Below, in pieces: positions 13,837 to 14,275 of a stretch of DNA of 53,816 nt. The stretch is from a virus, in IMG/VR virus record IMGVR_UViG_3300032050_000179, positions 1 through 53,816 of that record, one strand, 5' to 3'. The position numbers and the translations under genes are program-made. Under the pieces are notes generated by a model. That model was not told the origin of the DNA and ran no database searches. It worked only from the letters and a program-made list of their open reading frames with translations. Every line of letters begins with the position of its first letter. Position 1 is the first letter of the stretch.

Positions 13837-13974
13837 AACTAGAGAATAATACTTCGAGCGTGTTTCTAGTGCTATCCGCTACACCACATCCGGATTACCC
13901 GAATGCCAGGATTCGAACCTGGGCCTTTTTTGTTACAGAAAAAATTGAAGTAACTCGTTGTTCCGCTTCTAGTT
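13837..13974 (-). tRNA. Circularly permuted tRNA in RNA element (unit E)
   Basis: The outer helix AACTAGA/TCTAGTT and inner helix CGAGT/GCTCG, with AGCGG, TTACTTC and ATTC, enclose a 3' half (T arm CCAGG-TTCGAAT-CCTGG, acceptor CATTCGG). A five-nt linker follows, then a 5' half (acceptor CCGGATG, D arm GTGTAGCGGATAGCAC). The acceptor strands pair in all seven positions. Just after TTACTTC a T-run/A-run hairpin presents the seven-nt loop CTGTAAC, which would read as GUA. The body looks more Asp/Glu/Gln-like, with discriminator G. An ordinary tRNA-Tyr(GUA) and tRNA-Asp(GUC) are already present, so identity is open. Confidence 0.75.
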
Positions 13975-13980
13975 AATGTC

Positions 13981-14119
13981 TTGCAGAGAATGATTTCAAG
14001 AGTCTTTTTAGGACAAATGCTCTACCACCTGAGCTATACGCTTTCCATCAAGGTATACGTAGTAGGATTCGAACCTACGACCCATTGTTTTGAAGTAACT
14101 CTTCGAACCGCTTCTGCAA
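13981..14119 (-). tRNA. Circularly permuted tRNA in RNA element (unit D)
   Basis: The outer helix TTGCAGA/TCTGCAA and inner helix AAGAGTT/GACTCTT, with AGCGG, ACTTC and ATTC, enclose a 3' half (variable GGGTC, T arm GTAGG-TTCGAAT-CCTAC, acceptor TACGTAT). An 11-nt linker follows, then a 5' half (acceptor AAGCGTA, D arm GCTCAGGTGGTAGAGC). Six of seven acceptor positions pair. Anticodon-stem strands TTTGT and ACAAT are on opposite halves, so the break lies in or next to the anticodon loop. A canonical U33 could not be placed, so the anticodon is unassigned. Valine has no ordinary tRNA here, but I see no direct evidence for it. Confidence 0.72.
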
Positions 14120-14127
14120 TAAAATTT

Positions 14128-14275
14128 TTTCAGAGAATATTTGCTAGAGTGTAGTACGTGCTCTACCACTGAGCTAACTCGGTATTAAATGTGGAAGAAA
14201 TGTACCGAGTGAGGGAATCGAACCCCCGACCACGAGCTTAAGAGGCTGAAGTAACTCTTGCGACCGCTTCTGAAA
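14128..14275 (-). tRNA. Circularly permuted tRNA-Lys(CUU) in RNA element (unit C)
   Basis: The minus strand reads outer helix TTTCAGA, AGCGG, inner helix AGAGT, TACTTC, then the 3' half (14247 down to 14203), a 19-nt linker, and the 5' half (14183 down to 14157), closed by ACTCT, ATTC and TCTGAAA. Joining the 5' half, ending GAGCACG, to the 3' half, starting AGCCTCTTAAGCTCG, gives a flawless 72-nt tRNA. Acceptor ACCGAGT/ACTCGGT, D stem GCTC/GAGC, anticodon arm CGAGC-CTCTTAA-GCTCG and T stem GGGGG/CCCTC all pair. The break lies between positions 28 and 29 of the anticodon stem. Only the permuted reading gives a tRNA, because the halves are in the wrong order for a normal gene. Confidence 0.88.

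What the first reader, a model, noticed from the sequence alone, without database searches (positions are those of the whole stretch)
13837..14275. Three permuted units in tandem
Units C, D and E follow each other with only about 6-8 nt between outer helices, then a CAU tRNA starts three nt later. Such packing suggests spread by duplication with replaced tRNA contents. The element could be a reusable cassette.
Basis: partly seen in the sequence, partly recalled or inferred. Interest (0 to 1): 0.8.

Follow-up and report, generated by a model that had tools for sequence, protein, structure and literature searches.

The report
Phage Y RNAs mimicking permuted tRNAs
The three tandem units are small non-coding "Y RNAs" of a giant phage: a stem of the kind bound by the protein Ro60 carries a rearranged, sealed-off copy of a tRNA, often with its anticodon arm, so they look like tRNA look-alikes rather than working tRNAs and could be bait for enzymes that attack tRNAs.

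Summary
Units E (14275-14128), D (14119-13981) and C (13974-13837), minus strand, lie 8 and 6 nt apart; tRNA-Met starts 3 nt later. They are Y RNAs of the YrlA type: a Ro60-type stem (GAAGCGG...GUUACUUC...UUCUC) closed on a circularly permuted tRNA. A covariance model built from 15 other phage units, none from the window, finds E, D, A and C at E = 7e-20 to 1e-7. Contigs with the unit encode Ro60 in 36 of 50 cases, against 0 of 21 control contigs. Window units B and F have the stem but no tRNA body. Beyond canonical YrlA, many units keep an anticodon stem-loop: C has GUA, E has CUU, F has UUU. Loop-only selection gives 34 of 38 fully paired stems against 4.7 expected. Nucleotides 27-28 pair with 42-43 across the Ro stem. 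The acceptor end is closed in C, and often by GNRA tetraloops in relatives, so charging is unlikely. "Reusable cassette" fits. "Recent local duplication with swapped contents" does not, because each body's closest relative found lies in another phage. Likeliest role: a Ro60-anchored tRNA decoy (inferred, untested). Some bacterial YrlAs also have the anticodon hairpin. New variant of a known kind.

The parts
14128..14275 (-). Unit E: Y RNA with permuted Lys-like tRNA body
   Evidence: model R1 88.4 bits, E 6.8e-20; Rfam YrlA 32.2 bits
14235..14247 (-). E anticodon hairpin AGC-CUCUUAA-GCU (anticodon CUU); the next two bases CG (14234-14233) pair with CG after the D-arm
13981..14119 (-). Unit D: Y RNA with permuted body; counterpart of L019 unit (Asn GUU), anticodon hairpin lost or changed here
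   Evidence: R1 56.6 bits, E 6.2e-12; body 74% to L019
13837..13974 (-). Unit C: Y RNA with permuted body; acceptor closed by a 3-5 nt loop
   Evidence: R1 39.8 bits, E 9.6e-8; body 73% to L009 unit
13926..13944 (-). C anticodon hairpin UUUUUU-CUGUAAC-AAAAAA (anticodon GUA, Tyr; GAA in the L009 counterpart)
13759..13833 (-). ordinary tRNA-Met(CAU), 3 nt downstream of unit C
14623..14703 (-). Unit F: Y RNA without T- or D-arm, terminal hairpin ACAAA-CUUUUAC-UUUGU (14674-14658, UUU, Lys)
10810..10947 (-). Unit A: Y RNA with permuted Leu-like tRNA body
   Evidence: R1 46.1 bits, E 2.6e-9; best pool matches all tRNA-Leu
10339..10413 (-). Unit B: Y RNA without tRNA body and without an anticodon hairpin

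Best explanation
Shown by sequence comparison: the units are phage Y RNAs of the YrlA type. The transcript ends pair into a stem with conserved motifs. Inside lies a tRNA opened in the anticodon stem between nucleotides 28 and 29, with T half first, acceptor strands joined by a linker, and D half last. Many units keep the anticodon stem-loop. Inferred: the stem is held by Ro60, encoded by most phages that carry the element. The body folds into an L that tRNA-binding enzymes recognise, but it is not used in decoding because its acceptor end is closed. Most likely (inferred, about 0.4 on its own) the particle is a decoy or bait that occupies enzymes acting on tRNA during infection, above all host anticodon nucleases, or hands them to a Ro60-bound nuclease. 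Loops with U36 (Asn, Lys, Ser, Thr, Ile, Arg type) are preferred.
For: Y RNA identity: Ro60/TROVE in 36/50 contigs with the unit vs 0/21 control contigs; units directly upstream of Ro60 in L039 and in Bacillus phage G, and 1.7 kb upstream in a 430-kb relative; homology to bacterial YrlA. Structure: 15 phage units, 94% of cells paired, covariation 0.674 vs 0.206 shuffled and about 0.1 slid. Anticodon hairpin: 34/38 vs 4.7 (max 13/5000), 17 distinct stems; 27-28/42-43 pairing 23/30 vs 8.4 (max 16/5000), wrong register 1/30. Not a working tRNA: 12 of 21 four-nt acceptor loops are GNRA; C closed by 3-5 nt; no RtcB in 12 phage records including two of 430 kb; the phage already has tRNA-Lys and tRNA-Tyr. 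U36 26/34 vs 35% in 1175 tRNAs, p 1.4e-6; Lys 15/48 vs 7.7%. A tRNA-like domain as competitive inhibitor of an anticodon nuclease was proposed by Hughes et al. 2020, PMC7790460.
Against: No expression, Ro60 binding or nuclease data for this phage. The 53.8-kb window holds no Ro60, although it is a fragment and its relatives G001, G005, G013 do. Unit D lacks a clear anticodon hairpin and B and F have no tRNA body, so decoding-arm mimicry cannot be the role of every unit. The 3'-type hairpins do not share the Lys/Asn preference. The p-values ignore shared ancestry, and the list was assembled by hand. Single-sequence folding of the units is only mildly better than shuffles (z -0.8 to -1.6).
Confidence: 0.6

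Rival explanations
1. Permuted tRNA genes of the red-alga type: the Ro stem is cut out, the halves are joined in the anticodon stem and the linker is trimmed to give working tRNAs.
For: Exact joining at 28/29 would restore a perfect anticodon stem (E: CG+AGC with GCU+CG), and this pairing is kept. Bodies resemble real tRNAs.
Against: Acceptor ends sealed by very short or GNRA loops in many units; no RtcB in 12 related phage records; anticodons duplicate tRNAs already present; stem shared with body-less units and tied to Ro60; some anticodons begin with A (AUU, AAU, AAA), rare among the phages' tRNAs.
Confidence: 0.08
2. Classic RYPER role: the Y RNA tethers Ro60 to a host or phage exonuclease such as PNPase and gates degradation of structured RNA; the anticodon hairpin is an inherited remnant of the tRNA ancestor.
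For: Known function of bacterial Y RNA and YrlA (PMC8394870). Many units lack the hairpin. Simple and tRNA-bearing units coexist beside Ro60.
Against: A remnant should decay, yet the hairpin stem is kept by compensatory change in 17 sequence types and the loop keeps U33 and A37; U36 is enriched.
Confidence: 0.25
3. The units capture tRNA-modifying enzymes (for example those making t6A37, pseudouridine or dihydrouridine) or translation factors rather than nucleases.
For: YrlA is modified by DusA and TruB (PMC8394870). U36 loops are those whose A37 receives t6A (established knowledge); U36 enriched.
Against: No modification data in phages; t6A enzymes are essential to the host and to phage translation.
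Confidence: 0.1

Closest known systems
YrlA, bacterial Y RNA with tRNA-like domain (Rfam RF02553; Chen et al. 2014)
   Same: Ro60-type stem, permuted T/acceptor/D order, often several in tandem, partner Ro60
   Different: Phage units score below Rfam's cut-off; many add an anticodon stem-loop, which RF02553 and the description in PMC8394870 lack, though some bacterial YrlAs also have one
Ro60 genes and putative Y RNAs in phages (mycobacteriophages, Listeria phage CKA15, Vibrio phage pir03, jumbo phages)
   Same: Phage-coded Ro60 with ncRNAs nearby (PMC12282133, PMC7765460, PMC7824862)
   Different: Anatomy, anticodon hairpins and arrays inside tRNA clusters are not described in the passages read
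Circularly permuted tRNA genes (Cyanidioschyzon merolae, Thermofilum)
   Same: 3' half encoded before 5' half
   Different: No sign of splicing or of an open acceptor end; stem tied to Ro60
Phage tRNAs resistant to anticodon nucleases (van den Berg 2023, PMC10264068; PARIS escape, PMC11455837)
   Same: Phage RNA acting against tRNA-cutting host defence
   Different: Those replace cut tRNAs; here the RNA cannot decode and would have to work as bait

Membership tests
YrlA-type Y RNA | tRNA-like domain with T-arm, acceptor-like helix and D-arm in permuted order | tested here: met
YrlA-type Y RNA | terminal stem with conserved Ro60-type motifs | tested here: met
   stem conserved in 75 distinct units; covarying helix 1; motif differs in letters from the bacterial consensus
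YrlA-type Y RNA | genomic association with Ro60 | tested here: inconclusive
   absent from the 53.8-kb window fragment, present in relatives G001, G005, G013 and 36/50 contigs with units
YrlA-type Y RNA | Rfam RF02553 gathering score (a detection threshold, not a biological property) | tested here: not met
   32.2 and 31.5 bits vs 69; Bacillus phage G and Rhizobium phage units are also missed
YrlA-type Y RNA | binds Ro60, tethers PNPase | not testable with these tools
   needs pull-down
Permuted tRNA gene | 3' half precedes 5' half | tested here: met
Permuted tRNA gene | linker that can be processed to an open acceptor end | tested here: not met
   C closed by 3-5 nt; 12 GNRA among 21 four-nt loops in relatives; E and D have linkers of 18 and 15 nt, so not excluded for them
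Permuted tRNA gene | splicing and ligation enzymes available | tested here: inconclusive
   no RtcB in 12 phage records; host not known

The most novel reading that the evidence does not exclude
Phage, and some bacterial, Y RNAs are anticodon-specific, Ro60-anchored decoys: complete but unchargeable tRNA mimics whose anticodon loops are matched to the anticodon nucleases of the host, forming a modular RNA-based anti-defence system whose bodies and anticodons are switched between phages.
Probability: 0.3. Interest if true: 0.87.

Novelty: new variant of a known kind. Interest (0 to 1): 0.64.

Why it matters
Why phages carry Ro60 and Y RNAs, and what the tRNA-like part of Y RNA does, are open questions. 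Finding that the tRNA part often includes a covarying anticodon arm with a readable anticodon, that it is opened at one fixed point (28/29) and that its acceptor end is often sealed, gives direct tests: does the RNA bind or lure tRNA-cutting or tRNA-modifying enzymes, and does its anticodon decide which? Bacillus phage G, Bacteroides phage crAss001 and Rhizobium phage RHph_Y65 carry related units next to Ro60 genes and can be grown.

Tried and rejected
Group I intron or permuted intron-exon: no Rfam match to any intron. tmRNA: only 13.6- and 7.1-bit scraps. Pairs of neighbouring ordinary tRNAs imitate the T-then-D order: they score up to 43 bits with R1 but only over model positions 29-105, without the Ro stem, and were removed from the counts by an ARAGORN filter. 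First hairpin statistics were inflated by T-loops and replaced. Recent in-place duplication of C, D, E: body comparison speaks against it. PhoH-neighbour synteny (L034-L038) has no tRNAs, so it gave no answer on the array. The genome-contig scan gave 78 stretches, none of which passed the stem filter. DNA similarity search of the array in named phages found only the tRNA-Met among the best matches. Listeria phage P100: only a weak unit (23.9 bits). Chen 2014, Sim and Wolin 2018, Sim 2020 and Wang 2018 are not held, so whether the anticodon hairpin was noted before could not be checked.

Full report
What is there. On the minus strand of a 22-tRNA phage window, three units E, D and C stand head to tail, 8 and 6 nt apart, with tRNA-Met 3 nt after the last. 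Each has outer arms that pair, a 5' strand GAAGCGG...GAGUUACUUC, a 3' strand ...UUCUC, and between them a T-arm and acceptor-3' strand followed by an acceptor-5' strand and D-arm. Three more units exist in the window: A (10947-10810, permuted, Leu-like) and B and F (10413-10339, 14703-14623), which have the stem but no tRNA body. The array recurs with identical units in a second contig, L015.

What it is. A permissive Rfam scan gave YrlA, the bacterial Y RNA with a tRNA-like domain, at 32.2 and 31.5 bits for E and D, well under the curated 69. To test this, I scanned viral contigs with motif patterns and kept only sites whose two strands pair (75 distinct units). Searching whole contigs for Ro60 (TROVE) found it in 36 of 50 contigs with units and in 0 of 21 contigs whose motif hit had failed the stem filter (the controls are shorter on average). 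Units lie immediately upstream of Ro60 in L039 and in Bacillus phage G, and others lie near Ro60 in crAss001 and Rhizobium phage RHph_Y65. The window is a fragment without Ro60, but relatives by a 628-aa protein (G013 46%, two 430-kb contigs about 40%) encode it and carry the unit.

Homology test. Fifteen phage units, none from the window, were aligned. The proposed structure has 94% of cells paired, 21 of 28 pairs with changes on both sides and a covariation score of 0.674, against 0.206 for shuffles and about 0.1 for slid structures. The covariance model R1 from them finds E 88.4 bits, D 56.6, A 46.1 and C 39.8 over the full model, and bacterial YrlA loci at up to 73 bits.

The anticodon arm. 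Right after GUUAC(A/U)UC many units hold a hairpin with a 7-nt loop like an anticodon loop. Choosing units only by the loop CUNNNAA (38 of 172 non-redundant units, ordinary tRNAs removed), the 3 nt on each side are fully complementary in 34, against 4.7 when flanks are re-paired among units (maximum 13 of 5000), with 17 different stems. The next two nucleotides (42-43) pair with the two nucleotides after the D-arm (27-28) in 23 of 30 units, against 8.4 expected (maximum 16), and in the wrong register in 1. So the Ro stem is inserted in the anticodon stem between 28 and 29. A second layout ends with the anticodon arm; 14 of 14 candidates have a 5-bp stem, one of which (L086) I judge to be an ordinary tRNA-Lys. 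In the window C shows GUA, E CUU and F UUU; D has no clear hairpin although its L019 counterpart has GUU. Loops with U36 make up 26 of 34 against 35% among 1175 tRNAs of the same loci. These p-values do not correct for ancestry.

Not a working tRNA, most likely. Acceptor strands are joined by short loops in many units; 12 of 21 four-nt loops are GNRA, and C has 3-5 nt (helix detection there is noisy, 110 of 172 against 66 in shuffles). E and D have longer linkers, so the argument is weaker for them. RtcB was not found in 12 phage records. The window already has ordinary tRNA-Lys and tRNA-Tyr. In L198, L164 and L025 the same stem carries a tRNA in normal order, which shows that the stem is a platform for different bodies.

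Evolution. C, D and E bodies are 50-58% alike, while C/L009 is 73%, D/L019 74% and E/L024 61%. C and L009 differ in the anticodon (GUA, GAA) with an otherwise identical hairpin. Units are therefore older lineages that travel between phages; tandem packing is not evidence of fresh duplication. Bacterial YrlAs are also tandem (G335 and G589 three each) and some have anticodon hairpins (L334 GUU, L340 and L344 UUU, L343 GUC), so the feature is not phage-only.

How it may work. Shown: sequence, structure by covariation, Ro60 association. Inferred: binding to phage Ro60, tRNA-like fold, inability to be charged. Proposed: decoy for enzymes that act on tRNA, above all anticodon nucleases. Hughes et al. 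(PMC7790460) raised competitive inhibition of an anticodon nuclease for Salmonella YrlA; phages face such nucleases (PMC10264068; PMC11455837). A tether to an exonuclease, the known RYPER role (PMC8394870), remains a serious rival. In Listeria phage CKA15, very abundant ncRNAs lie near a Ro60-like gene (PMC12282133), which suggests that such RNAs can be strongly expressed.

Known or new. Y RNAs, their tRNA-like domain and phage Ro60 are known. The complete permuted tRNA with a readable, covarying anticodon and fixed opening point was not found in the papers I could search, but the key Y RNA papers could not be opened. I therefore rate it a new variant of a known kind.

Noticed in passing
window 6048-7178 (-): RlaP-type protein (PF10127, RNA repair polymerase-beta family) a few kb from the tRNA/Y RNA cluster.
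   Followed up: no
window 14309-14397, 14437-14530, 9831-9917 (-): tRNA-like sequences with normal acceptor and T-arm strands but distorted or missing anticodon arms, not called by ARAGORN; may be further mimics or decayed tRNAs.
   Followed up: no
L159 5251, L184 9836, L190 4830, L192 5228, L201 557; perhaps L019 7725, L179 9791: A longer class of about 230 nt with the same Y stem and a conserved 3' part GATTACCTCCCATAAGGAGGGACCACTC, near Ro60 in the cases looked at; no Rfam match.
   Followed up: partly
L198 8961, 8812; L164 1112, 1336; L025 3916: tRNAs (Lys, Thr, Leu, Ser) in normal order sitting inside the Ro stem; ARAGORN or Rfam annotates them as ordinary tRNAs, so Y RNAs may hide in tRNA annotations.
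   Followed up: partly
L358 41071-40934 (-), Listeria phage P100: Weak permuted tRNA-like unit with acceptor closed by UUCG, about 3 kb upstream of gp165 (DUF2828/DUF7788 rather than TROVE); may match the abundant ncRNAs of the related phage CKA15.
   Followed up: partly
L334, L340, L343, L344 (bacterial genomes): Bacterial YrlA loci with anticodon-like hairpins (GUU, UUU, GUC, UUU), a feature absent from the Rfam consensus.
   Followed up: partly
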